This document shows, piece by piece, positions 8,526-19,922 of a DNA stretch of 64,000 nt. The DNA is from Shouchella clausii. Its GTDB lineage: Bacteria > Bacillota > Bacilli > Bacillales > Bacillaceae_D. The notes below the pieces were generated by a model, which saw only the letters and a list, made by a program, of their open reading frames with translations, ran no database searches and was not told the DNA's origin. How positions within the stretch are numbered: the first letter of the stretch is position 1; every line of letters starts with the position of its first letter. The stretch covers positions 4,340,001 through 4,404,000 of the forward strand of contig NZ_CP019985.1 in assembly GCF_002250115.1 (NCBI RefSeq), given 5' to 3'. Made by a program: the position numbers and the translations under genes.

Positions 8526-9992
8526 TTAGAAATCCCATTTACGAGCGCTTACGCTAGCTTCCCCCTCTGAAAAAAAACGAATTCCCGTGCTTGCTTTATC
8601 TGGAAATATTCTTGCCGTAAACACTTCCTCTCCGTCATTAATGAAGACTTCTACCGAAGATTGATCAACAAAAATATGGAACTTCACGAATTCTCCTTGA
8701 AAGGAGCATTTTCGCACCGTACCGTATTCCTGTGCAAATGGTTGGCCAGCACTCGTCCGATCTAAAACGATCATCTGCTTGGCTTTATCGTATTTAATTA
8801 CCGTTTTCTCAGTTCCGTTCTCTCTAATGTTAATGCCTACCACTTGTGCGCTACCTGCATCAAACTCGCAAAGTAATTCATAGATATCCCCTTTGAAATC
8901 TGGGAATGTCTGTGTTTCGTTCACCAGCTTAAACGTTTTTTCGACTTTTTCTTTTCTTCGTTTTTTTAATTCGGGTACAGGTTTTTGTAGCAATTGATTC
9001 CCTTTTAGGATGAGCTCCCGCGGGATTGTTAAACAATGGGCCCAGCCATGTTTATCTGTTGGGTATTCGATCTCTGGGAGCCCCATCCAACCGACACACA
9101 AGTTCCTTCCACTTGGATCTTTCATTACTTGAGGTGCATAGAAATCAAAGCCACGATCCAGTTCCTGAAACTTGCCATGGTGAAATTGTTTCTCTTCGAA
9201 ATCAAGCGGCTCTCCTATTAAATAGCCAGCTTGATAAAGATTTTGAAAATGATTTCCTTGTGGCTTTAAGCCTTGTGGAGAGAAGATCAATATTCCTTTT
9301 CCGTTCATTTCCAAATAACCTGGACATTCCCACATAAAACCAAATGTATGGAGTTTCGTTTTCAATTCACCGTGAAAATTCCATGACTGAAGGTCAATCG
9401 ACTTATAAATGACCAAGCTTCCTGTTTTGTCTTCCCGTTGAGCACCGATTAACGCATAAAATTGGCCTTGTTTTTTGAACAGCATTGGATCGCGAAAATG
9501 ATCCGTATAGCCCTCTGGCACATGATCAATAACCGGCGCTGGAAATTTGCTGATCTTATACGTTTTATCCATCGTCGCCATACATTGATAAGGACGTCGA
9601 ACCCAATCGGCATCGCGTGTATTCCCTGTATAGAAAAGATAAAGCAACCCCTCATGTTCTAAAGCTGTTCCAGAAAAGGCGCCATGCGAATCAAAATAAG
9701 CTGTAGGCTCTATCCCAATCCCAACATTCTCCCAATGAACAAGGTCGGTGGATTTTGTATGATACCAATATTTAAGCCCATGAACTGGCCCTAGTGGAAA
9801 CCACTGATAAAATAAATGGTATTCACCATTATAATAGGAGAAGCCATTTGGATCATTTAATAAACCTGTTTTTGGTTGAATATGAAAAGACTGCCTCCAA
9901 GGACTAGCGGATACTTTCTCTTTTAATAGCATGATCTCTTCTTTTGTTGCCTCTTCAATCTTTCGATAACGTCTTTCTCTCGTCCACTCCAT
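8526..9992 (-). CDS. sacA: Sucrose-6-phosphate hydrolase (GH32)
   Basis: A GH32 beta-fructosidase that cleaves intracellular sucrose-6-phosphate to glucose-6-phosphate and fructose. The nucleophile motif LLNDPNG gives Asp46; FRDP and WECPG (acid/base Glu) are present, and a beta-sandwich C-terminal domain carries FVDQSSVEVFINDG. No signal peptide, which fits a cytosolic enzyme working after PTS uptake. ATG 9992 is chosen for GGAAGG 7 bp upstream; an in-frame GTG pair near 10034 directly follows the scrA stop and would add 14 residues. It lies between the PTS gene and the repressor gene. Confidence 0.93.
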   Translation of the reverse strand: MEWTRERRYRKIEEATKEEIMLLKEKVSASPWRQSFHIQPKTGLLNDPNGFSYYNGEYHLFYQWFPLGPVHGLKYWYHTKSTDLVHWENVGIGIEPTAYFDSHGAFSGTALEHEGLLYLFYTGNTRDADWVRRPYQCMATMDKTYKISKFPAPVIDHVPEGYTDHFRDPMLFKKQGQFYALIGAQREDKTGSLVIYKSIDLQSWNFHGELKTKLHTFGFMWECPGYLEMNGKGILIFSPQGLKPQGNHFQNLYQAGYLIGEPLDFEEKQFHHGKFQELDRGFDFYAPQVMKDPSGRNLCVGWMGLPEIEYPTDKHGWAHCLTIPRELILKGNQLLQKPVPELKKRRKEKVEKTFKLVNETQTFPDFKGDIYELLCEFDAGSAQVVGINIRENGTEKTVIKYDKAKQMIVLDRTSAGQPFAQEYGTVRKCSFQGEFVKFHIFVDQSSVEVFINDGEEVFTARIFPDKASTGIRFFSEGEASVSARKWDF

Positions 9993-10037
9993 TTGATCAC
10001 CTTCCTCGAGTAAAGAGAGGAGCGGTTTCACCACTCC

Positions 10038-11459
10038 CTATGCTTTGTCTTTAAAACGCTTTGAGAGCAATACGGTTAAGCTAAATGTCACGACAAACGC
10101 AATTACCATGCCGATCACATAATGGATTAATGAATCTGGGCGAATCGAAATAATCCCCGGCAATCCTGCAGCACCTAAAGCGACAGCTAAAACATTGTTC
10201 AGTGTGATATAGGCGTTAGCAACTGCGGCTCCAACGAGTGCAGCAAAAAATGGGTAGCGAAGTTTTAAATTGACACCAAACATGGCAGGCTCCGTGATCC
10301 CAAGTAATGCTGAAATACCTGAAGCGGAAGCCACTCCTTTTAGCTTCTGACTTTTCGTTATAAATAGGACAGCAAGTGCGGCTGCTCCTTGGGCAATGTT
10401 TGCCATTGCTGCTGTTGGGAAGATAAATGACCCACCGGTTTTCGCCATATCTGCCAGCAGTTGTGTTTCAATTGCAATAAAGCTATGATGCATTCCAGTA
10501 ATGACAAAAGGTGCATATAAGAAACCTAGAATCGCCCCGCCAATAGGTCCAGCTGTTTCATATAGGAAAACAATGCCGTCTGTTAAGAAATAACCAGCAG
10601 AACGAGTCAGTGGTCCAACGAATGTAAACGTTAAAATACCAGTTATAAATAGACTTAATAATGGCGTTAGCAAATTATCTAAAACGGTAGGGACTATCTT
10701 TCGCAAAAATTTCTCCAGTTGAGCCAAAATATAGGAGGCAACTAATACTGGTAATACGGTACTTTGATAGCCTACCATCTCAATGTTAAAGCCAAGGATA
10801 TTCCAAACAGGCACAGTGCCTTCTAGCTTTGCTACAGCATAGTCATTCCCATTTAATAAATCGGGATGAACCATGAGCATCCCTAAGGCAGCACCTAAAA
10901 ACGAATTTCCTCCGAACCTTTTTGCGGCCGAAAATCCTATGAGAACAGGCAAATAAACGAATGGCGCATTGGCAAATGTATTAATCAGCGCTGCCAGATC
11001 GGCCATGTTCGGATATGCTTCGATCAATGACAAGTCATCAAAAAACAGTCCTGAAGCTGTTAAGACGTTATTAAGCCCCATTAACAAACCACCAGCGACA
11101 ATCGCCGGAATAATTGGGACAAAAATGTCAGACAGCATCTTTACAAATCGTTGAATCGGATTTAATTTTTGATTCGCCGCATCTTTCACATCGACAGTTG
11201 ACATGTCTTCCATATTTGTTAAAGCTGCAAGCTCCTGATAAATTTTATTTACAGTGCCACTCCCTAAGATAATTTGATATTGACCACCTGTAGAGAATGT
11301 CCCTTTTACAATATCCATATCCTCAAGCTTTTTCTGATGAACAATGCCTTCATCGTTCAAAACCAATCGTAGCCGTGTTGCACAGTGGGAAGCAGCAGCT
11401 ATATTTTCCTTTCCACCTAACGCATCAAGAATCTCTTGAGCTTTTTGTCTGTCATTCAT
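10038..11459 (-). CDS. scrA: Sucrose-specific PTS enzyme IIBC
   Basis: An N-terminal EIIB domain holds the phosphorylation cysteine in ASHCATRLRL. A multi-span EIIC domain of the glucose-glucoside superfamily follows (for example GFLYAPFVITGMHHSF and SGISALLGITEPAMFGVN). There is no fused EIIA, so it must borrow a glucose-type EIIA, as other sucrose transporters of this class do. It imports and phosphorylates sucrose at the membrane. Start 11459 has GAGGGG upstream. First gene of the sucrose operon, behind the three-operator region. Confidence 0.92.
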   Translation of the reverse strand: MNDRQKAQEILDALGGKENIAAASHCATRLRLVLNDEGIVHQKKLEDMDIVKGTFSTGGQYQIILGSGTVNKIYQELAALTNMEDMSTVDVKDAANQKLNPIQRFVKMLSDIFVPIIPAIVAGGLLMGLNNVLTASGLFFDDLSLIEAYPNMADLAALINTFANAPFVYLPVLIGFSAAKRFGGNSFLGAALGMLMVHPDLLNGNDYAVAKLEGTVPVWNILGFNIEMVGYQSTVLPVLVASYILAQLEKFLRKIVPTVLDNLLTPLLSLFITGILTFTFVGPLTRSAGYFLTDGIVFLYETAGPIGGAILGFLYAPFVITGMHHSFIAIETQLLADMAKTGGSFIFPTAAMANIAQGAAALAVLFITKSQKLKGVASASGISALLGITEPAMFGVNLKLRYPFFAALVGAAVANAYITLNNVLAVALGAAGLPGIISIRPDSLIHYVIGMVIAFVVTFSLTVLLSKRFKDKA

Positions 11460-11497
11460 GATTTCCCCTCGTTTCAGATTTGAATTCAATCAATTTG

Positions 11498-11656: not shown

Positions 11657-11689
11657 AAGGAGAAAAGCTCCTTCCTCGCTTTTCTCCTT
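11657..11689 (-). terminator. Terminator of the amino-sugar-acid operon
   Basis: A perfect 12-bp stem AAGGAGAAAAGC/GCTTTTCTCCTT with a 9-nt loop lies 10 bp after the HAD gene stop, followed on the minus strand by a short T-rich tail. A second hairpin (AAGGT/ACCTT around 11612-11638) lies just beyond. Confidence 0.65.
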
Positions 11690-11698
11690 CAAGTATGT

Positions 11699-12361
11699 TT
11701 ACACCATCTCTCCTAATATGGTAGGGCTTAACTGTTCCAATGAATCGATTGTGATATCTGCCAGCGATAAATCCATCGGGATAGATGGATGCTTTACGCC
11801 AACTTTTTTCATCCCTGCCCGGGTTGCTGCTAGTAAGCCATTCGTTGAATCTTCAATGACAATACATTGTGCTGGAGCTTGGCCGAGCCTTTTCGCCGTC
11901 TGCAGGAAAATCTCTGGGTCCGGCTTACTATCCGCAAATTCCTCTCCGCTTACAACCACATCGAATAGATGCGCCAATCCACAATCGGTTACTACTCGGT
12001 TGATTCTCTCTCTGTCGGACGAAGATGCCAATGCTATACGGACCCCATTGCTTTTAAGGCTTTCGATTAAAGGCCGGACAGCGGGAAATTGAATGTCCTT
12101 GAAGCAGCATTCTTTTCCTTGAAAGGATTCGTACTGGTATTGAATTAGTTCTTCTACCGTTTGGGAAAGCCCACAATGCTCTTTAATCAATTGCCATTTC
12201 CGTTTTATGCTGCCACCAATCAATTGCAATTTGATTTCCTCAGGAACAGAAATCTTTAATTGCCGATATAACTCTTGATTCCACAAGCGATAAACAGGCT
12301 CACTGTCGACAATCACACCGTCCATATCAAAAATGACTGCATATGCGCCTTTCTTTTTCAT
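11699..12361 (-). CDS. HAD-IA phosphatase/phosphomutase-like protein
   Basis: The HAD motif I VIFDMDGVIVDSEP is at residues 9-22, motif II at ALASSSD, and motif III/IV at VIEDSTNGLLAATRAGMK. Residues between motifs I and II form the alpha-helical cap of the beta-phosphoglucomutase-like subgroup. The gene is the last of the ten-gene operon and starts 4 bp after the aldolase stop. In that setting it could dephosphorylate a sugar-acid intermediate or clear a dead-end phosphate ester. Substrate is inferred only from context. Confidence 0.85.
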   Translation of the reverse strand: MKKKGAYAVIFDMDGVIVDSEPVYRLWNQELYRQLKISVPEEIKLQLIGGSIKRKWQLIKEHCGLSQTVEELIQYQYESFQGKECCFKDIQFPAVRPLIESLKSNGVRIALASSSDRERINRVVTDCGLAHLFDVVVSGEEFADSKPDPEIFLQTAKRLGQAPAQCIVIEDSTNGLLAATRAGMKKVGVKHPSIPMDLSLADITIDSLEQLSPTILGEMV

Positions 12362-12365
12362 CCTT

Positions 12366-13082
12366 TTACTTCCATTCCATACTAATTAACTGCTTGATTT
12401 TCTCCACTTCTGTTTTGCCGGTCTTTTGGTCAATCAGTGATGTATACAAATGAGGAATCACCGTTTCCGCCCCGTTGTCGAGACAGACTTGGACGATGCG
12501 CTCGACATTGTCCACATCAATTCCTCCTGTTGGCTCAAAGATTGTTAAACCGGCATTGACAGCCGCTTTGACCATTGCTGCGACTTCATCGAGACGTTTT
12601 TCGCCATCGATCGGATAAAACTTGACAGAGTCTACGCCAATTTCAGCAAGCATGGCCGCAGCCAGTTCACAGGAAACTTTTTCTTTGAAATCAGCACTGC
12701 GTGGCCCAGTGGAAATATAGACTTCACCAGCTGTCCCAGTTGGTTCAATCAGTGCGTTGACGAGTGTAGTCGACGCCTTTAGCTCGCTCATCCGCCCACG
12801 TGTATAGCCGGCTGCTGGAAAGACTTGATTGATATGGTTTGGCACCGTCTTGGCGGAAACATCAGCAACCATTTTCCACATTGCAGGGTCGCCAGCTCCT
12901 AGTCCTACTGAGACAGGAATATCGTTGTTTTTATACAATGCCACCTGTTCAATTGCTTCTTTGGCTGATGGAAAATGTTTGACCATTACGCCTATGAGCA
13001 CACGGTCTCCTGCTACTTGCACTAACTCTTTTGCGTTTTCTACATCTTTGGCCAATACGTTGAAAATGACTTTTTCGTTCAT
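12366..13082 (-). CDS. 2-dehydro-3-deoxy-6-phosphogluconate aldolase, DgaF family
   Basis: A 238-residue protein of the KDGP-aldolase family typified by DgaF of the Salmonella D-glucosaminate pathway (EF_0839-type in Enterococcus). Recognisable stretches include VSVGLGAGDPAMWKMVADVS, STGPRSADFKEK, SVKFYPIDGEKR with the probable Schiff-base lysine, and FEPTGGIDVDNVERIV. The expected reaction splits KDGP into pyruvate and glyceraldehyde-3-phosphate. The start codon overlaps the stop of the DgaE-like gene (ATGA), so the two enzymes of consecutive steps are coupled. Confidence 0.88.
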   Translation of the reverse strand: MNEKVIFNVLAKDVENAKELVQVAGDRVLIGVMVKHFPSAKEAIEQVALYKNNDIPVSVGLGAGDPAMWKMVADVSAKTVPNHINQVFPAAGYTRGRMSELKASTTLVNALIEPTGTAGEVYISTGPRSADFKEKVSCELAAAMLAEIGVDSVKFYPIDGEKRLDEVAAMVKAAVNAGLTIFEPTGGIDVDNVERIVQVCLDNGAETVIPHLYTSLIDQKTGKTEVEKIKQLISMEWK

Positions 13083-14191
13083 GAGGACTGCCCCTCTTTC
13101 ACTATCCGTTTGATTTCACTTGCAATGATGTCTTCTTGTCCTTTCAGTAAAGGACGGGGATCAACCGATAAAATCCCCACATTTACATAATGATGCCGTA
13201 AAAAGATGGCTGGGTTGCCTGATTCAAGGCGATGAAGAAGCTCTGCTGCTGTCATGCCTGCTTTGCTAGGATCAACTTGAATTTGCGCACGATAAATCGC
13301 TCTTCCGGCCTCGTCTTGTTTGATCGAACAATGCAATCCTTTCACATCCGCCAAAGCATCGGCCAGCTTTGTCATACGTTCAATTTGTTCATCGCCATTG
13401 TCTTCCTTAAGCGGATATTGTTTTAAAGCAGCGATAAGTCCGGCAACTCCTTCTTTCCCTACTTTCATTGGCCGGCCAACTCCTTTATATTGCATGCGGC
13501 ACGCTTCCATCCATTTCTTTTTCCCGCAAATCAAACCAGAAGTGGGACCTTCCAATGCTTTTCCCCCGCTGTAAATAACGATATCTGCGCCCATTCGGAT
13601 ATATGCTTGAAAATCTTCTTCTGCCGCAGCATCAACAATGAATGGTAACTGGTGTTCCTTCGCAATTTTCATCATTGTTTCAAGCGACTGCATGCCTTTT
13701 TGAACAGCATGATGGGATTTTATGTAGAGAAGTGCGGCTGTTTTCTCTGTGATTGCCTGTTCGATATGATCTGCCTCTACTTTATTCGCATTGCCGACCT
13801 CGACAGGTTTCCCGCCGCCGATTCGAACCATTTGTGCAATGCTTGCACCAAAATGAATCTGCTGGCCTTTTTGAATAATTATTTCATTGCTAAGTCCTTC
13901 AGAGTCTGGCATTTTTTCGATTAAAGTTAGATTTTTTCCGGTTATCACAGACGCTGTCGAGATGGCAATTCCTGCGGCTGCCCCGCATGTAGGGCAGCCG
14001 TCTTCCGCGCCTGTATATTCTGCGATCACACTGCCGGCGAATTCCATCATTTCATCGATATCGACATAATCTTGCGCGGCACGCTTTAGCGCATCTGCGA
14101 CTTCATCACTGACTGCAGACGCACCTAGAGCCGTCATTTTCCCACTGGCGTTAATGACTTTACGAAGACCCAACTGTGAAAAAAAACTCAT
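13079..14191 (-). CDS. PLP-dependent ammonia lyase, DgaE family (SelA-related)
   Basis: A fold-type I PLP enzyme related to selenocysteine synthase. The PLP lysine is in YSGGKALEGPTSG (Lys211), preceded by the FIVDAAAEED aspartate loop. Near the N-terminus a GCPTCGAAAGIAIS segment replaces the usual phosphate-binding loop. The DgaE prototype turns D-glucosaminate-6-phosphate into KDGP plus ammonia. Its product is exactly the substrate of the next gene, which supports the pathway. It is encoded 12 bp after the DUF4310 gene in a continuous operon. Confidence 0.87.
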   Translation of the reverse strand: MSFFSQLGLRKVINASGKMTALGASAVSDEVADALKRAAQDYVDIDEMMEFAGSVIAEYTGAEDGCPTCGAAAGIAISTASVITGKNLTLIEKMPDSEGLSNEIIIQKGQQIHFGASIAQMVRIGGGKPVEVGNANKVEADHIEQAITEKTAALLYIKSHHAVQKGMQSLETMMKIAKEHQLPFIVDAAAEEDFQAYIRMGADIVIYSGGKALEGPTSGLICGKKKWMEACRMQYKGVGRPMKVGKEGVAGLIAALKQYPLKEDNGDEQIERMTKLADALADVKGLHCSIKQDEAGRAIYRAQIQVDPSKAGMTAAELLHRLESGNPAIFLRHHYVNVGILSVDPRPLLKGQEDIIASEIKRIVKEGQSS

Positions 14192-14203
14192 CGCTCACTC
14201 ATC

Positions 14204-14878
14204 CTATTCTAAAGAGATTGGAAATATTGCGCCAAAAATCATGGCGCCTAAAATCGCTCCGCCTGCTACTGGCTTTTTCCATATATAGAAAATCGCCGCA
14301 CCAATGGTTGAACCAATTCCGATTGGGATCGAGGCACTTGCTGCAGAAAGAACGATTAACGGTCCGAGAAAGCGGCCCGATGTATTTCCAGCGCCCATCA
14401 TAATATCAGCACCAAACGTGGAATTGGATTGCCCAACTGTTAATTTGCGAATTGCCAAGATGGCATAGCCAACGAGTGCCCCTAACAAAGCGCCTGTTAG
14501 CAAGGAAAGGATAAAATTTTCAATCGGGGCTGTAATACCCGACGCTAGCAGGATTGCCGGCACGCCTATGCCAAGACCGGTTTGCAGGGATCCGCCAATA
14601 TCTAATATCCCTACGAGCGCCCCTTCCAACACACGGGCGAATAAAAAGCTCGCTCCAAAAGCGGCTGCTGCCCCGTAGCCTGCTCCTTGAATCCCGGCTT
14701 CCAACATAGCGACAATTGCTACATCATTGAATGCGCCAATTTTATACACATAGTACATATGCGTTCCGGCAAAAATGCCTGACGAAAGAAGGGCGACAAA
14801 AATGGGAAAGGACCAGTCCGCATACCAAAACGTTTTATACATATCTTTTTCAGCGAGAGACTCTGATTGCGTTGTCAC
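14204..14878 (-). CDS. DUF4310 membrane protein, putative transporter subunit
   Basis: A 224-residue integral membrane protein with about six hydrophobic segments rich in Gly and Ala (for example GALLGALVGYAILAI and SIPIGIGSTIGAAIFYIW). From memory it matches the DUF4310 (EF_0832-like) family, known only from a conserved cassette with the neighbours seen here. It starts 1 bp after the DUF4311 gene. Because DUF4310 and DUF4311 are the only multi-span proteins in an operon that needs an importer, I infer they form the membrane part of a transporter. No biochemical role is established as far as I know. Confidence 0.75.
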   Translation of the reverse strand: MTTQSESLAEKDMYKTFWYADWSFPIFVALLSSGIFAGTHMYYVYKIGAFNDVAIVAMLEAGIQGAGYGAAAAFGASFLFARVLEGALVGILDIGGSLQTGLGIGVPAILLASGITAPIENFILSLLTGALLGALVGYAILAIRKLTVGQSNSTFGADIMMGAGNTSGRFLGPLIVLSAASASIPIGIGSTIGAAIFYIWKKPVAGGAILGAMIFGAIFPISLE

Positions 14879-14879
14879 C

Positions 14880-15665
14880 TTACTTCACCTCTAATCCTAA
14901 CAGTTTATGAAAGTCTAAAAGCCATTCTGGTGGAGCCATGTTCATGCTCTCCAATAACTGAATATCGAAGCCACGGAAAAATGCGCTTAAAATAAAGAGA
15001 ACGATAACAGAAATAAGCAATGTCTTCGTTACCTTCGTCCAACCGCTATCATCGACTCCCTTGCCGATTAATATCCCAAGCACCACACCTGGCACGGCAT
15101 TCCCCATAATCAAGTGGGCAGCACCACCGAAAATTGTGCCCCAGAAACCAGAGCGCTTGCCAGCGTCTAATGCGGCCAACCAGAAAATGACGGGCATAAT
15201 CGGATCGATTAACAAATTTGCTGCCGGCACAAGGACGTGGACGGCAATCGCTTGCAATGATTCGGGAATCGCAGAAGCTGTCAAGTTCAAAAAGGCAACG
15301 ACGATAATCCCAATAATGCCGCCTGAAATCGCCATTTTTTTCGGATTATGTAGCGTATCTTCTGGGCGCTTGCCTTTGCGCATTAATACCGCTGCCGCCC
15401 AGTTAGGAATAATACGGTGGTCCACATCCTGTGTGAAGGCACCTGCCCCGACAGAGGACGCCCACGCATTAAAGAAGAAGCCTAATCCGAATGAAAAGTG
15501 GGATGCCGCATCTCCCGCACAAGCATTTAGCTCCCCAAGTGTCCGGAATGCTCCCATTCCTTGTGCTTTTGGTGCATGGAACATCCGGGCAGCCCCAGCA
15601 CCGACACCGACACCGACAAAAGCACCAATAATGATTGATTTTATTGCTACCTCTATCATCTCCAT
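14880..15665 (-). CDS. DUF4311 membrane protein, putative transporter subunit
   Basis: A 261-residue protein with about six to seven hydrophobic segments. Its soluble-looking N-terminal third is Gly-rich and conserved in appearance: GVGVGAGAARMFHAPKAQGM, then NACAGDAASHFSFGLGFFFN, then GAGAFTQDVDHRIIPNW. Charged and polar residues such as His and Asp within apparently buried segments suggest a substrate path. It belongs to the DUF4311 family of the same cassette. It follows the DUF4312 gene by 14 bp and abuts DUF4310. Function unproven; probable permease partner. Confidence 0.75.
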   Translation of the reverse strand: MEMIEVAIKSIIIGAFVGVGVGAGAARMFHAPKAQGMGAFRTLGELNACAGDAASHFSFGLGFFFNAWASSVGAGAFTQDVDHRIIPNWAAAVLMRKGKRPEDTLHNPKKMAISGGIIGIIVVAFLNLTASAIPESLQAIAVHVLVPAANLLIDPIMPVIFWLAALDAGKRSGFWGTIFGGAAHLIMGNAVPGVVLGILIGKGVDDSGWTKVTKTLLISVIVLFILSAFFRGFDIQLLESMNMAPPEWLLDFHKLLGLEVK

Positions 15666-15679
15666 ATGTTTCTCCTCCG

Positions 15680-16036
15680 CTATTTATCCGCTACTTGCCT
15701 ATTGCGGAAAATATGATTTACAATCCCATCAGGCGACTCGATTTTTTTAAAAGGAATCTCTTCTACTTTCAGCAGTGTAATCTTTACATCCACTTCTAGC
15801 TTGACCGTATACTCGCTTCTTTTTCTCGGGAAGAAAAAGAGCAAAAAGCGCTCCGTGTACGTATGCTCAATCGCTTCATTGACATGGATGCTTACAGGTT
15901 CAATGCGGATAATCATCGCTTTATACTCATCCATCACTTTTCTCTGGATTTTCCCGAGCGCGGTGTTAATGGCAAGCTCCTTTGACTTTCCTTTGCCGCT
16001 TACTAGAACGGTGTGCTGGACCATCTTCTCCATCAT
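15680..16036 (-). CDS. DUF4312 small soluble protein
   Basis: A 118-residue protein with no membrane segment, predicted mixed alpha/beta (TVLVSGKGKSKELAINTALG; RSEYTVKLEVDVKITLLKVE). It belongs to the DUF4312 family, which co-occurs with DUF4310, DUF4311 and SFCGS proteins. The start codon follows the SFCGS stop by one base with AAGGG just upstream, implying coupled translation and fixed stoichiometry. I infer a cytosolic subunit of the putative transporter. Nothing in the sequence identifies a catalytic residue. Confidence 0.7.
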   Translation of the reverse strand: MMEKMVQHTVLVSGKGKSKELAINTALGKIQRKVMDEYKAMIIRIEPVSIHVNEAIEHTYTERFLLFFFPRKRSEYTVKLEVDVKITLLKVEEIPFKKIESPDGIVNHIFRNRQVADK

Positions 16037-16037
16037 G

Positions 16038-16400
16038 TTACCCTTGCACTTTCTTTAAATAGGCTTCCGTAATTCTCTTGCCAAGCTCTTCTGTATCCAT
16101 AAAACCAAAACCGAGTACTTTTTTTCCTTCATTAATGGCTGTGATGCCTTCATCAACAGAACGCATGCCATAATGTGCTGGGTAGCCGTATTTTGTTTGT
16201 GCAGTGATGGCACCTGCTCCACCGCTTCCACAGAATGAAATACCGATATCAGCATTCTCTGTATCCATAACATCACCAAGACGCATGTCCGCGCCAACAC
16301 CGGAAATGACAATCGCCTTCCCACCAGCAGCTTCAACGCCTTTTGCTACATTATGTCCTTTACCTAAGCGATCCCCGATAACCACAACAACTTGACTCAT
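16038..16400 (-). CDS. Glycine-rich SFCGS-family protein
   Basis: A 120-residue soluble protein with a Rossmann-like start (MSQVVVVIGDRLGKGHNVAK) and the family-defining SFCGSGGAGA with Cys57. The size, the N-terminal beta strand and a conserved cysteine after a strand recall PTS EIIB domains, but the signature is different, so this is only an analogy. ATG 16400 is chosen because GGAGGGGG lies about 8 bp upstream. It lies between the stand-alone PRD gene and DUF4312. Possible phosphoryl or substrate carrier of the transporter; unproven. Confidence 0.75.
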   Translation of the reverse strand: MSQVVVVIGDRLGKGHNVAKGVEAAGGKAIVISGVGADMRLGDVMDTENADIGISFCGSGGAGAITAQTKYGYPAHYGMRSVDEGITAINEGKKVLGFGFMDTEELGKRITEAYLKKVQG

Positions 16401-16421
16401 TTTACATTCCCCCTCCAATGA

Positions 16422-16751
16422 TTAATCCTTCATTTTAGCTGTTTCAAAATGGATAGAAAGCAAGTATTTCTCATCCTCATGCAAATCCGTCAATCTGTTG
16501 CACACTTTTTCTGCCATTTCGATTGATTGCTTGGATACTTCCTGAAATAGATGTTTATCGATAGGCTCGATCCGTTCCTTATGCGTGGAACGGTAGACCA
16601 TCGCTGAAAGATGGGACAATAACGATAGCTTCTGCGCGTCTGTCGTCTGAATATGCTCTTGCCTTAATAGGTTTTCTGTAAATTGCATCACTTCCACGCA
16701 CAGTTCGTAGTTTTCACTCTTGCGGTATAATTCTTGCACTTTCCCTTCCAT
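16422..16751 (-). CDS. Stand-alone PRD protein (EF_0829 type)
   Basis: A 109-residue protein that consists of little more than one PTS-regulation domain. The two landmark histidines are His47 in LLSHLSAMV and His101 in YLLSIHFE. There is no DNA- or RNA-binding domain. The gene starts 38 bp inside the amidohydrolase gene with AAGGA upstream. Single PRD proteins of this kind accompany the DUF4310-4312 cassette; the likely role is to sense PTS phosphorylation or to modulate the large PRD activator encoded two genes upstream. Confidence 0.72.
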   Translation of the reverse strand: MEGKVQELYRKSENYELCVEVMQFTENLLRQEHIQTTDAQKLSLLSHLSAMVYRSTHKERIEPIDKHLFQEVSKQSIEMAEKVCNRLTDLHEDEKYLLSIHFETAKMKD

Positions 16752-17880
16752 TTTCCTTCGTGTATGCCACCTTTCCAGTCTTAACGGTTATATACGGGGT
16801 AAGCACTTGATGATAGCTCAGTTGTTCACCTTCTGAATCAATAAGTGTAGACATCCCTTCTTCTTTAAGGCCGAATATCGTCACATCTGCTATGGTCCCA
16901 AGGCGAAATGTTCCTTGCTCTGTTAAGTGAAGCGTGTCGGCTGCTCTTTTTGTTACAGCTGCAACCACATCTGTCAATCGGTACCCTAGTGCAAGAAGCT
17001 TGGTCATCGTCACCATCAGGCTGCCTACTGGAGTTGCATAGTTGTTTTTATAAATATCTGTGCTTATCGTAAATGGAAGATCATAGTTGTCCTTAAATCG
17101 TTTCATTGTTTTATAGCTAAAGCTCGAAGTGCCATGCCCCACATCGAAGCGGACGCCTCTTTCAATCGCACTTCTTGCTTCCGGAATCATGTCTCCTGAC
17201 TCAGTTAAAATTCCATGCTTCTTTCCATGAAAAGCATGCGTGACAATATCCCCCTGTTTAAGAAGGGGAAAAATCTCCTGTAAAGGCGGCGGTGGATTCC
17301 CGATATGGACCATAATTGGCTTGCCAAGCCGGTCTGCCAACTGTCTGGCATGGACTAATGGCTTGATTCCACTGTTTTTCACAACAGAACCGCTCATACG
17401 CGCTTTTATGCCTACAAGGCTCTGCTCTTGTTGGAAAATTTCGTTTGCTTCTTTTAGCGTCATTAACTCATCTAATTTGGCAAGCTCAGATAGGCCATTA
17501 CATAAGCCCTTTCGTGACAGGTTTAAAAAGGCCAATATTTCTGTCTTGCTTTTCTCGATCACGGTTTCCTTAAAAAGTGGATAGTTCTCATACCCCGCAC
17601 TGCCAGCATCCACGATTGTTGTGACTCCCTGATCGATCCCTACTAAATCGGGCTCAATGCCCAGCTCGGTATAATCTTCAAACACATGGGCATGCAAGTC
17701 GATAAAACCTGGTGCAACATAATGATTGGTTGCATCGATATACTGAACCTCTCCACCTGCCTGTATCACATCTTCTACTGCAGTAAAAACACCATTGACG
17801 ATGCCAATCTCTTTTTTGCTAATCGTTAAAGTTTCCGGGTCAATCACGAAGCCGTTCTGGATAATAATGCCTTGAATCAT
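16714..17880 (-). CDS. Amidohydrolase/deacetylase-family metallohydrolase
   Basis: An amidohydrolase-superfamily enzyme of 388 residues. The metal-binding HxH is in APGFIDLHAHVFED; later ligands are the lysine of VGIKARMSG, His in IMVHIGNPPP, His in VTHAFHG, and Asp in FDVGHGTSSFS. C-terminal beta-sandwich strands close the fold (GTFRLGTIADVTIFG). Relatives are annotated as deacetylases or dihydroorotase-like enzymes. In this operon it probably removes an N-acyl group from an aminated sugar acid before the ammonia-lyase step. It starts 4 bp after the regulator gene. Confidence 0.85.
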   Translation of the reverse strand: MIQGIIIQNGFVIDPETLTISKKEIGIVNGVFTAVEDVIQAGGEVQYIDATNHYVAPGFIDLHAHVFEDYTELGIEPDLVGIDQGVTTIVDAGSAGYENYPLFKETVIEKSKTEILAFLNLSRKGLCNGLSELAKLDELMTLKEANEIFQQEQSLVGIKARMSGSVVKNSGIKPLVHARQLADRLGKPIMVHIGNPPPPLQEIFPLLKQGDIVTHAFHGKKHGILTESGDMIPEARSAIERGVRFDVGHGTSSFSYKTMKRFKDNYDLPFTISTDIYKNNYATPVGSLMVTMTKLLALGYRLTDVVAAVTKRAADTLHLTEQGTFRLGTIADVTIFGLKEEGMSTLIDSEGEQLSYHQVLTPYITVKTGKVAYTKENGRESARIIPQE

Positions 17881-17884
17881 ATAA

Positions 17885-19732
17885 TCACTTCCATTTTTTC
17901 AAGTACTGTAAAAGAGTAATAACCTCAGCTTCATGAACATGTAAATCTTTATCCTGTAAAATTTGCTGCACGCTATGGAACATTTCCTCGTCGCTGTCTA
18001 GCATTTGATTATTTGCATAGAGGTACTGGTCATATTGCTTATCAAAGTAATAGCGGTGAACCATTAAAAAGACGTGCATCATAAACGCATTTTTCCATCG
18101 TTCTTCTGATTTAATTGGAAAGGCTTCCAATAATGCGTGAGCAGCTTCAAAGCCTTTTAAAATAATTTCCTGGCTGAGGTTCTCACTATCTTCACTGATC
18201 GTAAACTCATTGTTCTCCAACAGCTCGTTCGTCTGCTCGTCGTCTGAACCGATCATCGCTCGTACTTGTTTGCGAATTTCTTCGATATCTCTTTTTGCAG
18301 GCAGCGGCTCGACAACGACAACAGGAACGGCGGCTTCAACAGGAAAAACGCTGATAATCAAATCCACCTCTTCAGCCTGACAAATCTCTTCCACTTCAAG
18401 CAAGGAACAATAACAGACAATATCGACGGCAGGAATTTCTTTTTCTACCCGATTTTTGATTAACCGGGCAACCCCTCTTCCTGTTGAACATACATATAAA
18501 ACCTTTACTTTCTTTTTCGGTTTAAATGTATTTTCATAAGAAACGAGGAAGTGCAAAACAATAAAAGAGATAAAAGAATCTTGGGCTACCAATGTGTGTT
18601 GTTTCACATACTTGCGGCAAGCTTCCTTGACACTTTGGAAAAGAGACGCATGGTTTCTTTTCACTTCGTCCTCCATTGGGTTCATTTCATTTAAATAAAA
18701 TGAGCCATTTTGAAGCCTCAGTGACAAATGAGAAAGCAGATTGCTATAAAGTTTAGGATCCTTTTTATAGTTGATTCCTTCTTGCTCGCCTACATACTCG
18801 ATCATCTTCTCGGTAATGTCGACGATGTCCATTTGTCCAGATGCTTTTTCTATATTTCCTGATACATACGCGTATTCTTCCTCGAGCAACGGCAACTGCA
18901 TATCAGTGTAGACTTTCTCCATAACGGTCACCAGAAACAAGGAGAGATCATCTTGATCATGAGAACGCTCCAACATCCGATAGCTATGAATCGTACGCCC
19001 CATCGTTAATCTTTTCACCGAAAACGTGAGCCGCAGTAGGAATCTCAACAAATCAGAGAGCCGCAACAAAGACGCCAAGGATGGCGAATAGAACGCGCTC
19101 ATATGACTTTCAGCCATTTCATAAATAGGTTTTAATGGCTCTTCCAATATCGTGCCAATCTCAATTTGCCGCTCTTTTTTCGTAATTCGAGTCGTTAGCT
19201 TATAGATTTGATAATCATCTAAGCTGTTGTAAATAATATGCTCAAGCATCAGCCGCAGCTGAAGTTCATTGCCATGAAGGCGATACCCTGTTCTTTGCTT
19301 TCGCTCCAACTCAATATTCCATGATTTTAAAAACTCGTCTACATGGTTCAAATCGCTTAAAATTGTGTTTCTGCTGACTGCTAGCATCTCCGATAACTGA
19401 GCAGCGGTTTTATACTCATTCGTCCATAATAGGGACAGAATAATCCTTCTGACACGCATCGTTTGATCTGGGTAAATTTGCGATCGTTTGAATTGTGCCA
19501 AAATCCGTCTTAATTCAGCGCGCTCCCGATCACTGCATTGAAGCCAAATCCCCTTGCTTGTCTGGGAATTCACCGTTCTCCCCTGCAACTTAAACCATTT
19601 GCGAACATTTTCAAGGTCATACTTAATCGCTCTTGTGCTCACCCCAAACTCGATTGACAAATCTTTGATTCTAATCGGAGCTTTCGTATTCAACAGCTTA
19701 TTTGTTAAATAAAATTCCCTTGCGCTTAGCAT
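17885..19732 (-). CDS. PRD-containing transcriptional activator (BglG/MtlR-like) with EIIB domain
   Basis: A modular 615-residue regulator. HTH_11 lies at about residues 5-60, a second Mga-like HTH at about 93-150 (TAAQLSEMLAVSRNTILSDL), PRD1 at about 190-295, and PRD2 at about 300-405 with His335 (LLSHL) and His394 (VLHFL). An EIIB-like domain contains the phosphorylatable Cys415 in YVCSTGRGVA. The last 95 residues look like a third helical, PRD-like unit rather than EIIA. It heads the ten-gene operon and is the obvious pathway activator, controlled by PTS phosphorylation. Confidence 0.87.
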   Translation of the reverse strand: MLSAREFYLTNKLLNTKAPIRIKDLSIEFGVSTRAIKYDLENVRKWFKLQGRTVNSQTSKGIWLQCSDRERAELRRILAQFKRSQIYPDQTMRVRRIILSLLWTNEYKTAAQLSEMLAVSRNTILSDLNHVDEFLKSWNIELERKQRTGYRLHGNELQLRLMLEHIIYNSLDDYQIYKLTTRITKKERQIEIGTILEEPLKPIYEMAESHMSAFYSPSLASLLRLSDLLRFLLRLTFSVKRLTMGRTIHSYRMLERSHDQDDLSLFLVTVMEKVYTDMQLPLLEEEYAYVSGNIEKASGQMDIVDITEKMIEYVGEQEGINYKKDPKLYSNLLSHLSLRLQNGSFYLNEMNPMEDEVKRNHASLFQSVKEACRKYVKQHTLVAQDSFISFIVLHFLVSYENTFKPKKKVKVLYVCSTGRGVARLIKNRVEKEIPAVDIVCYCSLLEVEEICQAEEVDLIISVFPVEAAVPVVVVEPLPAKRDIEEIRKQVRAMIGSDDEQTNELLENNEFTISEDSENLSQEIILKGFEAAHALLEAFPIKSEERWKNAFMMHVFLMVHRYYFDKQYDQYLYANNQMLDSDEEMFHSVQQILQDKDLHVHEAEVITLLQYLKKWK

Positions 19733-19887: not shown

Positions 19888-19922
19888 ATGGGAGCAGCGA
19901 TCAACTTGATCTCTGCTCCCAT
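19888..19922 (-). terminator. Terminator of the GH106-like gene
   Basis: A strong stem ATGGGAGCAG-GATC/GATC-CTGCTCCCAT with a short loop. On the minus strand it is followed by TTTTGTCTT, 50 bp after the glycosidase stop. A T-rich tail on the plus side means it could work in both directions. Confidence 0.75.

What the first reader, a model, noticed from the sequence alone, without database searches (positions are those of the whole stretch)
11699..19732. Ten-gene operon coupling an uncharacterised DUF4310/4311/4312/SFCGS cassette to amino-sugar-acid degradation
Seen: one strand, gaps from overlaps to 21 bp, order activator, amidohydrolase, PRD, SFCGS, DUF4312, DUF4311, DUF4310, DgaE-like lyase, DgaF-like aldolase, HAD phosphatase. 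Known: DgaE/DgaF convert D-glucosaminate-6-phosphate to KDGP and then to pyruvate and glyceraldehyde-3-phosphate in Salmonella, where a mannose-type PTS feeds them. Inference: here the PTS genes are replaced by the DUF proteins, which would be a new kind of sugar-acid transporter. The amidohydrolase suggests an N-acylated substrate such as N-acetylglucosaminate.
Basis: partly seen in the sequence, partly recalled or inferred. Interest (0 to 1): 0.88.

Follow-up and report, generated by a model that had tools for sequence, protein, structure and literature searches.

The report
Uncharacterised PTS-linked amino-sugar-acid uptake cassette
A bacterial operon joins enzymes that break down an amino sugar acid to a widespread set of uncharacterised proteins that look like a new kind of sugar importer powered by the cell's phosphate-relay (PTS) system, with distant relatives in E. 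coli's unexplained yhf operon.

Summary
The ten-gene minus-strand operon is real (window 11699-19732). It belongs to the EF_0829-EF_0839 cassette that NCBIfam already catalogues without a function. PRD, SFCGS, DUF4312, DUF4311 and DUF4310 are present in 90 of 90 relatives examined.

New here: the cassette recruits general PTS proteins. HPr lies in 17 of 90 loci and EI in 11: Paenibacillus, Brevibacillus, Bartonella plasmids (HPr-EI fusion) and one unnamed Bacillota genome, with at least 4 and 3 changes on a tree. Both PRD histidines are invariant (89 of 89), as is the SFCGS Cys (81 of 81). No kinase is in the operon, although DgaE keeps the arginines proposed to hold a 6-phosphate. DgaE-DgaF loci without the cassette carry a PfkB kinase in 7 of 10 and a mannose PTS in 1 of 10. 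SFCGS is homologous to E. coli YhfU.

Best reading: a non-canonical PTS permease, PRD(His) to SFCGS(Cys) to substrate through DUF4311/4310, supplying an N-acyl amino-aldonate-6-phosphate. The phospho-relay and the substrate are inferred.

The parts
17885..19732 (-). Transcriptional activator/antiterminator-like regulator (HTH_11, Mga, PRD; 615 aa)
   Evidence: Pfam; first gene of the unit; Klebsiella and Bartonella counterparts also carry PTS_EIIA_2
16714..17880 (-). Amidohydrolase/deacetylase (COG3964/EF_0837 type, 388 aa); H63,H65,K159,H192,H215,D275 match the amidohydrolase metal-ligand pattern (pattern recalled)
   Evidence: NF006689 425 bits (cut-off 371); 2ics and 2ogj relatives; these residues 78 of 78
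16422..16751 (-). Stand-alone PRD protein (109 aa); proposed His phosphocarrier
   Evidence: TIGR03582; both PRD histidines invariant in 89 of 89 relatives
16038..16418 (-). SFCGS glycine-rich protein (126 aa), invariant Cys63 in FCGSGGAGA; proposed EIIB-like subunit
   Evidence: TIGR03577; Cys 81 of 81; homologous to YhfU/DUF2620
15680..16036 (-). DUF4312 soluble protein (118 aa), no His or Cys among positions conserved in 90% or more; proposed structural/adaptor subunit
   Evidence: TIGR03578; conservation
14880..15665 (-). DUF4311 membrane protein (261 aa); proposed translocator subunit
   Evidence: TIGR03580; 5 strongly hydrophobic segments; AF2 pLDDT 76.5
14204..14878 (-). DUF4310 membrane protein (224 aa); proposed translocator subunit
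   Evidence: TIGR03579; 5 strongly hydrophobic segments; AF2 pLDDT 71.8
13079..14191 (-). DgaE-type PLP ammonia-lyase (370 aa); H160/H161, K211 and proposed phosphate-site R301/R332/R346 kept
   Evidence: TIGR01437; 7lc0 alignment; His pair 78 of 78, the others 77 of 78
12366..13082 (-). DgaF-type KDGP aldolase (238 aa)
   Evidence: TIGR03581/PF07071; PDB relatives
11699..12361 (-). HAD-IA phosphatase (220 aa), lineage-specific addition
   Evidence: over 150 bits in 9 of 90 cassette loci
19890..19920 (-). Hairpin followed by ATTTTGTCTT, probable terminator of the upstream gene
   Evidence: read by eye; not listed by the scan
11657..11673 (-). Weak terminator-like hairpin after the HAD gene
   Evidence: scan total not above shuffles

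Best explanation
The operon encodes uptake and catabolism of a 2-amino (probably N-acylated) sugar acid. DUF4311 and DUF4310 form the membrane translocator; SFCGS, DUF4312 and the small PRD protein form its cytoplasmic part. The system draws phosphate from PEP through EI and HPr: HPr~P phosphorylates a PRD histidine (acting as EIIA), this passes to the SFCGS cysteine (acting as EIIB), and the incoming substrate is 6-phosphorylated. The amidohydrolase removes the N-acyl group, DgaE removes ammonia to give 2-keto-3-deoxygluconate-6-phosphate, and DgaF cleaves it to pyruvate and glyceraldehyde-3-phosphate. Shown here: operon, conservation, co-occurrence with DgaE/DgaF, repeated recruitment of HPr/EI, conservation of catalytic residues, homology of SFCGS to YhfU. 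From the literature: the DgaE/DgaF chemistry. Inferred: translocation, the His-to-Cys relay, phosphorylation of the substrate, the acyl group.
For: Dedicated PTS proteins: HPr in 17 of 90 loci, EI in 11 of 90. HPr+EI stand upstream of the regulator on the same strand in 8 Paenibacillus loci, HPr alone in 3 more Paenibacillus and 3 Brevibacillus loci, an HPr-EI fusion on 2 near-identical Bartonella plasmids, HPr+EI downstream of DgaF in G159. At least 4 changes for HPr and 3 for EI on a DUF4311+DUF4310 tree. The 8 Paenibacillus genomes with both have 3 or 4 EI-N matches each, one of which falls on the cassette copy, so that copy is extra. HPr His motif kept in 14 of 14 and EI His motif in 8 of 8 of those tested. 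No EII protein among the L052 operon proteins scanned or annotated in L112-L114. PRD: H, R, E, H are the only fully invariant positions, 89 of 89; the 90th PRD is fused to the regulator; PRD adjoins SFCGS in 88 of these 89, L084 being the exception. SFCGS Cys 81 of 81. PRD and SFCGS share one open frame in G274. Kinase logic: DgaE residues kept (PMC9529869); PfkB near 3 of 90 cassettes against 7 of 10 DgaE-DgaF loci without the cassette, mannose PTS in 1 of 10. Co-occurrence: 7 of 7 within 13 of 398, P 5.8e-12.
Against: No sequence or fold link of DUF4310/4311 to any known EIIC was found, nor of SFCGS to the EIIBs tried. 73 of 90 loci have no HPr or EI in the fetched stretch. HPr/EI could serve the PRD regulator rather than the transporter. 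SFCGS weakly resembles RpiB/LacAB isomerases (11 of 22 members, best E 0.0037), which suggests another role for its Cys. Three genomes keep the cassette apart from DgaE/DgaF, and their separate DgaE-DgaF loci have a kinase or PTS of their own. E. faecalis L111 has a kinase and an EIIC in the cluster. The PRD::SFCGS case is one genome and has an internal Met, so it may be two overlapping genes. The residue at the lyase's carboxylate-site Arg226 is Lys in the window (K 55, R 21 of 78).
Confidence: 0.5

Rival explanations
1. DUF4311/4310 is a secondary (ion-coupled) permease; the PTS only regulates it and the operon through PRD phosphorylation (inducer exclusion, activator control). Phosphorylation of the substrate is done by a kinase elsewhere.
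For: PRDs are classically regulatory targets of HPr and EIIB (established knowledge); the operon regulator has a PRD; no homology to EIIC or EIIB found; a PfkB kinase is present in L047, L049 and L111.
Against: The stand-alone PRD matched only PRD in Pfam, with no DNA-binding family over cut-off, adjoins SFCGS in 88 of 89 loci and shares its open frame in one genome. DgaE-DgaF loci without the cassette mostly carry a kinase or PTS whereas cassette loci mostly do not.
Confidence: 0.25
2. HPr and EI are recruited only for the BglG/Mga-type activator; the cassette has no phosphotransfer role of its own.
For: The regulator lies next to HPr/EI in Paenibacillus and Bartonella; it carries PRD and in some species EIIA_2 or a weak, sub-cut-off EIIB-like domain.
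Against: In Brevibacillus and G159 HPr lies after DgaF, away from the regulator. It does not explain the invariant PRD histidines and SFCGS Cys. Whether other PRD activators bring their own HPr was not tested.
Confidence: 0.15
3. SFCGS is an RpiB/LacAB-like sugar-phosphate isomerase or binding protein, and the membrane pair imports an already phosphorylated sugar acid or lactone.
For: Weak LacAB_rpiB matches in 11 of 22 SFCGS members and of YhfU (E 0.065); local alignment at the CGTG motif.
Against: Profile comparison SFCGS-RpiB is weak (P 0.023, 26 columns); does not explain HPr/EI; phosphorylated sugar acids are thought rare as external nutrients (general knowledge).
Confidence: 0.1

Closest known systems
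Salmonella dga system (mannose-family PTS for D-glucosaminate)
   Same: DgaE and DgaF chemistry; phosphorylating uptake by DgaABCD precedes DgaE (passages of PMC9529869)
   Different: Uses a canonical mannose-family permease; that its operon lacks the cassette and the amidohydrolase is recalled, not checked
NCBIfam EF_0829-EF_0839/AHA_3910-3917 families
   Same: Window genes score over cut-off for TIGR03577-TIGR03582
   Different: That catalogue gives no function; the amidohydrolase falls under the EF_0837 (TIGR03583) cut-off
E. coli yhfSTUWXYZ operon (YhfT, YhfU/DUF2620, YhfY PRD)
   Same: SFCGS-YhfU homology; both have a stand-alone PRD; conserved Cys and first PRD His; a PTE-family hydrolase and PLP enzymes nearby
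   Different: Single 434-aa membrane protein YhfT with no detectable link to DUF4311/4310; different enzymes; second PRD His not conserved; no HPr/EI in the Bacillota yhf stretches searched
Ong pathway for N-acetylglucosaminate (Pseudoalteromonas)
   Same: Order of chemistry: deacetylase, PLP deaminase, then keto-deoxygluconate (PMC9537276, passages)
   Different: Unphosphorylated route with SSS-family transporter and KdgK; deacetylase OngB is a D-aminoacylase-like subtype V enzyme (PMC12017989, passages)
Canonical PTS EII permeases
   Same: Linked to EI and HPr; candidate phospho-His and phospho-Cys proteins
   Different: No sequence or fold relation of the subunits was detected

Membership tests
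EF_0829-EF_0839 families (TIGR03577-03583) | Scores over curated cut-offs | tested here: met
   TIGR03577, 03578, 03579, 03580, 03581, 03582 over cut-off; TIGR03583 under it (330.3 against 432.15)
PTS permease (EII) | Works with EI and HPr | tested here: inconclusive
   Genomic linkage only: HPr 17 of 90, EI 11 of 90 loci
PTS permease (EII) | Membrane subunit belongs to a known EIIC/EIID superfamily | tested here: inconclusive
   No EII family in Pfam for DUF4310/4311; profile comparisons with small ManY, ManZ, UlaA, SgcC and EF0834 sets P>=0.075; no PDB fold match
PTS permease (EII) | EIIB homology | tested here: inconclusive
   SFCGS against UlaB, SgcB, ManX-B P>=0.17 with tiny profiles
PTS permease (EII) | Phosphoryl transfer to substrate | not testable with these tools
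   needs biochemistry
D-glucosaminate-6-P ammonia-lyase (DgaE) | NCBIfam equivalog cut-off NF047797 | tested here: not met
   441 against 600 bits
DgaE family (TIGR01437) | Subfamily cut-off and active-site residues | tested here: met
   544.5 against 385.3 bits; His pair 78 of 78, Lys211 and three Arg 77 of 78
DgaF equivalog NF047796 | Curated cut-off | tested here: not met
   282.3 against 300 bits; the broader PF07071 is met
COG3964-type amidohydrolase/deacetylase | NF006689 cut-off and metal-ligand pattern | tested here: met
   425 against 371 bits; residues 78 of 78, pattern recalled
E. coli Yhf-type system | YhfU (DUF2620) homologue | tested here: met
   SFCGS-DUF2620 P 5.4e-7, probability 92%, 119 columns; reversed controls P>=0.09; 10 of 22 members match DUF2620 weakly, best E 0.0067
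E. coli Yhf-type system | YhfY-like PRD protein | tested here: inconclusive
   PRD-YhfY P 1e-9, but both are PRD-domain proteins, so the match does not show special kinship
E. coli Yhf-type system | YhfT-type membrane protein | tested here: inconclusive
   DUF4311, DUF4310 and their joined profile against YhfT P>=0.049; profiles shallow (Neff about 1.8)

The most novel reading that the evidence does not exclude
A PTS permease family unrelated to all known EII superfamilies, in which a stand-alone PRD domain, known as a regulatory target, is the phosphocarrier (EIIA role) and an SFCGS/DUF2620 protein is EIIB, with a sister branch in the E. coli yhf operon.
Probability: 0.35. Interest if true: 0.88.

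Novelty: new variant of a known kind. Interest (0 to 1): 0.74.

Why it matters
Known PTS permeases fall into a few EII superfamilies. A further one, with a PRD as phosphocarrier, would change how PRD proteins and PTS evolution are read, give a function to four uncharacterised families (DUF4311 alone has at least 505 relatives in a species-level genome collection), and offer a testable handle on the E. coli yhf operon. It would also supply a phosphorylated route for N-acyl amino sugar acids such as those from oxidised chitin, beside the known unphosphorylated Ong route.
Full report
OBSERVATION. The window holds ten minus-strand ORFs at 11699-19732 in the order given. Six are over the cut-offs of TIGR03577-03582, models named after EF_0829 to EF_0839 / AHA_3910 to AHA_3917 and typed 'hypothetical equivalog'; the amidohydrolase is under that of TIGR03583. 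The window genome is Shouchella-like: DUF4311 is 100% identical in S. clausii, S. tritolerans and S. rhizosphaerae loci.

DISTRIBUTION. With 6 loci of the Bacillota survey and 4 of the 6 plasmid hits this makes 90; L083 and L133 are the same contig and 87 of 90 DUF4311+DUF4310 rows differ. SFCGS, DUF4312, DUF4311 and DUF4310 are found in 90 of 90, DgaE and the amidohydrolase in 86 of 90, DgaF in 78 of 90. Some loci are cut by contig ends, so absences are not proof. The three genomes without local DgaE (L039, L043, L083/L133) have DgaE and DgaF elsewhere; what lies beside their cassettes was not worked out. Five Xenorhabdus genomes and that of L036 have DgaE but no PF07071 aldolase. In 398 Bacillota genomes DUF4311 is over cut-off in 7 (three more weaker matches), SFCGS in the same 7 (one more weaker match), DgaF in 13 including those 7; hypergeometric P 5.8e-12, which ignores shared ancestry.

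PTS COUPLING. The Bartonella HY406 and HY761 plasmid cassettes end in a ptsP gene; in HY406 its 671-aa product has HPr and the EI domains, and the HY761 gene matches HPr and EI in one ORF too. Searching the 80 loci with it found HPr+EI in 8 Paenibacillus loci and HPr alone in 6 more; survey locus L132 (G159) has a HAD gene, HPr and EI after DgaF. Totals: HPr 17 of 90, EI 11 of 90. On a tree of joined DUF4311+DUF4310 these need at least 4 and 3 changes (quick method, several long branches, L132 among them). The 8 Paenibacillus genomes have 3 or 4 EI-N matches each and 5 to 7 HPr matches; one EI-N match in each falls on the cassette copy, so that copy is extra. G159 has three EI-N matches, one in the cassette. 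Active-site histidine motifs are kept in the 14 HPr and 8 EI tested. All L052 operon proteins except DUF4311, DUF4310, DgaE and DgaF were scanned with Pfam; none is an EII, though the regulator has a sub-cut-off PTS_IIB match. EII queries (ManXYZ, Ula, Sgc, EF0834) hit only L033, L036, L037, L043, L045 and L111 among the 90, none of them among the 17 loci with HPr; the query set was limited. None of the 10 DgaE-DgaF loci without the cassette has HPr or EI.

CANDIDATE PHOSPHOCARRIERS. The stand-alone PRD, found as a small ORF in 89 of 90 loci, has just four fully invariant positions, H, R, E and H; in L043 it is fused to the regulator with both histidines kept. It adjoins SFCGS in 88 of 89 (L088 and L092 counted by inspection of overlapping frames); in L084 it lies 3.1 kb off. 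In G274 PRD and SFCGS share one frame without a stop. SFCGS has Cys63 in 81 of 81 (window plus the 80). DUF4312 has no His or Cys among its conserved positions. That PRD histidines are PTS phosphorylation sites is established knowledge, not tested here.

KIN. SFCGS aligns over its length with YhfU/DUF2620 (P 5.4e-7; reversed controls 0.09 or worse), supported by weak Pfam matches (10 of 22 members). PRD aligns with YhfY (P 1e-9), as two PRD proteins should. YhfU Cys and YhfY first His are 14 of 14. Twelve Bacillota yhf loci were fetched, one of them in the window genome; YhfZ, YhfY, YhfU and YhfT follow one another in 9 of them. HPr and EI were not found in any of the stretches L093-L109, which hold these 12. 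DUF4311/4310 show no link to YhfT.

PATHWAY. DgaE aligns with the solved ammonia-lyase 7lc0 at 346 bits; the histidine pair is 78 of 78 and the lysine and Arg301/332/346 are 77 of 78 with one gap. The paper (passages only) places the docked phosphate near Arg301/332/346 and states that uptake by DgaABCD yields the 6-phosphate. Its carboxylate-site Arg226 is Lys224 in the window (K 55, R 21 of 78), and its Lys-217 does not fit the alignment, which puts the lysine at 213. The window operon has no kinase. DgaE-DgaF loci without the cassette (6 from genomes without it, 4 from genomes that have it elsewhere): PfkB in 7 of 10, mannose PTS in 1, neither seen in 2; cassette loci: PfkB in 3 of 90. One PfkB query was used, so other kinases may be missed. 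The amidohydrolase is related to 2ics and 2ogj; that these are EF_0837 and Atu3266 is recalled. Recalled, not read: COG3964 enzymes hydrolyse acetyl-(R)-mandelate, a 2-acyloxy acid, in keeping with a 2-acylamido acid. The Ong pathway shows the same order of deacetylation and deamination without phosphate (PMC9537276, passages). Klebsiella adds a lactonase; E. faecalis adds an EIIC, MupG and a kinase.

STRUCTURE. AlphaFold2 gave middling models (pLDDT 71.8 and 76.5) with no convincing PDB match. The proteins may fold only as a complex, so this says little.

VERDICT. The operon is real and its family entries are old, but nothing in the listings or passages I saw reports the PTS coupling, the invariant PRD histidines, the kinase exchange or the tie to the yhf operon. 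I rate PTS coupling in some form about 0.8, direct substrate phosphorylation by the cassette about 0.5, an N-acyl amino-aldonate substrate about 0.45.

Noticed in passing
L109/L007 (G274:C1:242116-242751): DUF4311 has an in-frame TAG at the position of a nearly invariant Trp (window W162), while the flanking cassette genes look open.
   Followed up: partly
L106 (G000:C1:608000-627000): The window genome carries its own yhf-type operon (YhfZ-YhfY-YhfU-YhfT-PTE-YhfS-YhfX-YhfW).
   Followed up: partly
[not shown]
   Followed up: no
L084:3862-11462: Virgibacillus halotolerans has two different DgaE genes around the cassette, and its PRD gene is 3.1 kb from SFCGS.
   Followed up: no
L111; PMC7701990: E. 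faecalis EF0838, listed in a Tn-seq paper as L-seryl-tRNA selenium transferase (passage), appears to be the DgaE gene of this cassette (annotated DgaE family in L111; the tag match is inferred from gene order).
   Followed up: partly
L111:10626-13361, L127, L129: Enterococcus and Vagococcus DgaE-DgaF clusters add a PTS EIIC and MupG (6-phospho-N-acetylmuramidase), and in some a 99-aa protein, suggesting a cell-wall-derived substrate there.
   Followed up: partly
window 8526-11489: A PTS permease and a sucrose-6-phosphate-hydrolase-like gene (named by eye) follow downstream on the same strand.
   Followed up: no
L132:12453-12929: In G159 the SFCGS DRLGKG motif reads HRLGKG.
   Followed up: no
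L086:9284-9955: SFCGS and DUF4312 share one open frame in Providencia stuartii NCTC11800: a fusion or a sequencing indel.
   Followed up: no
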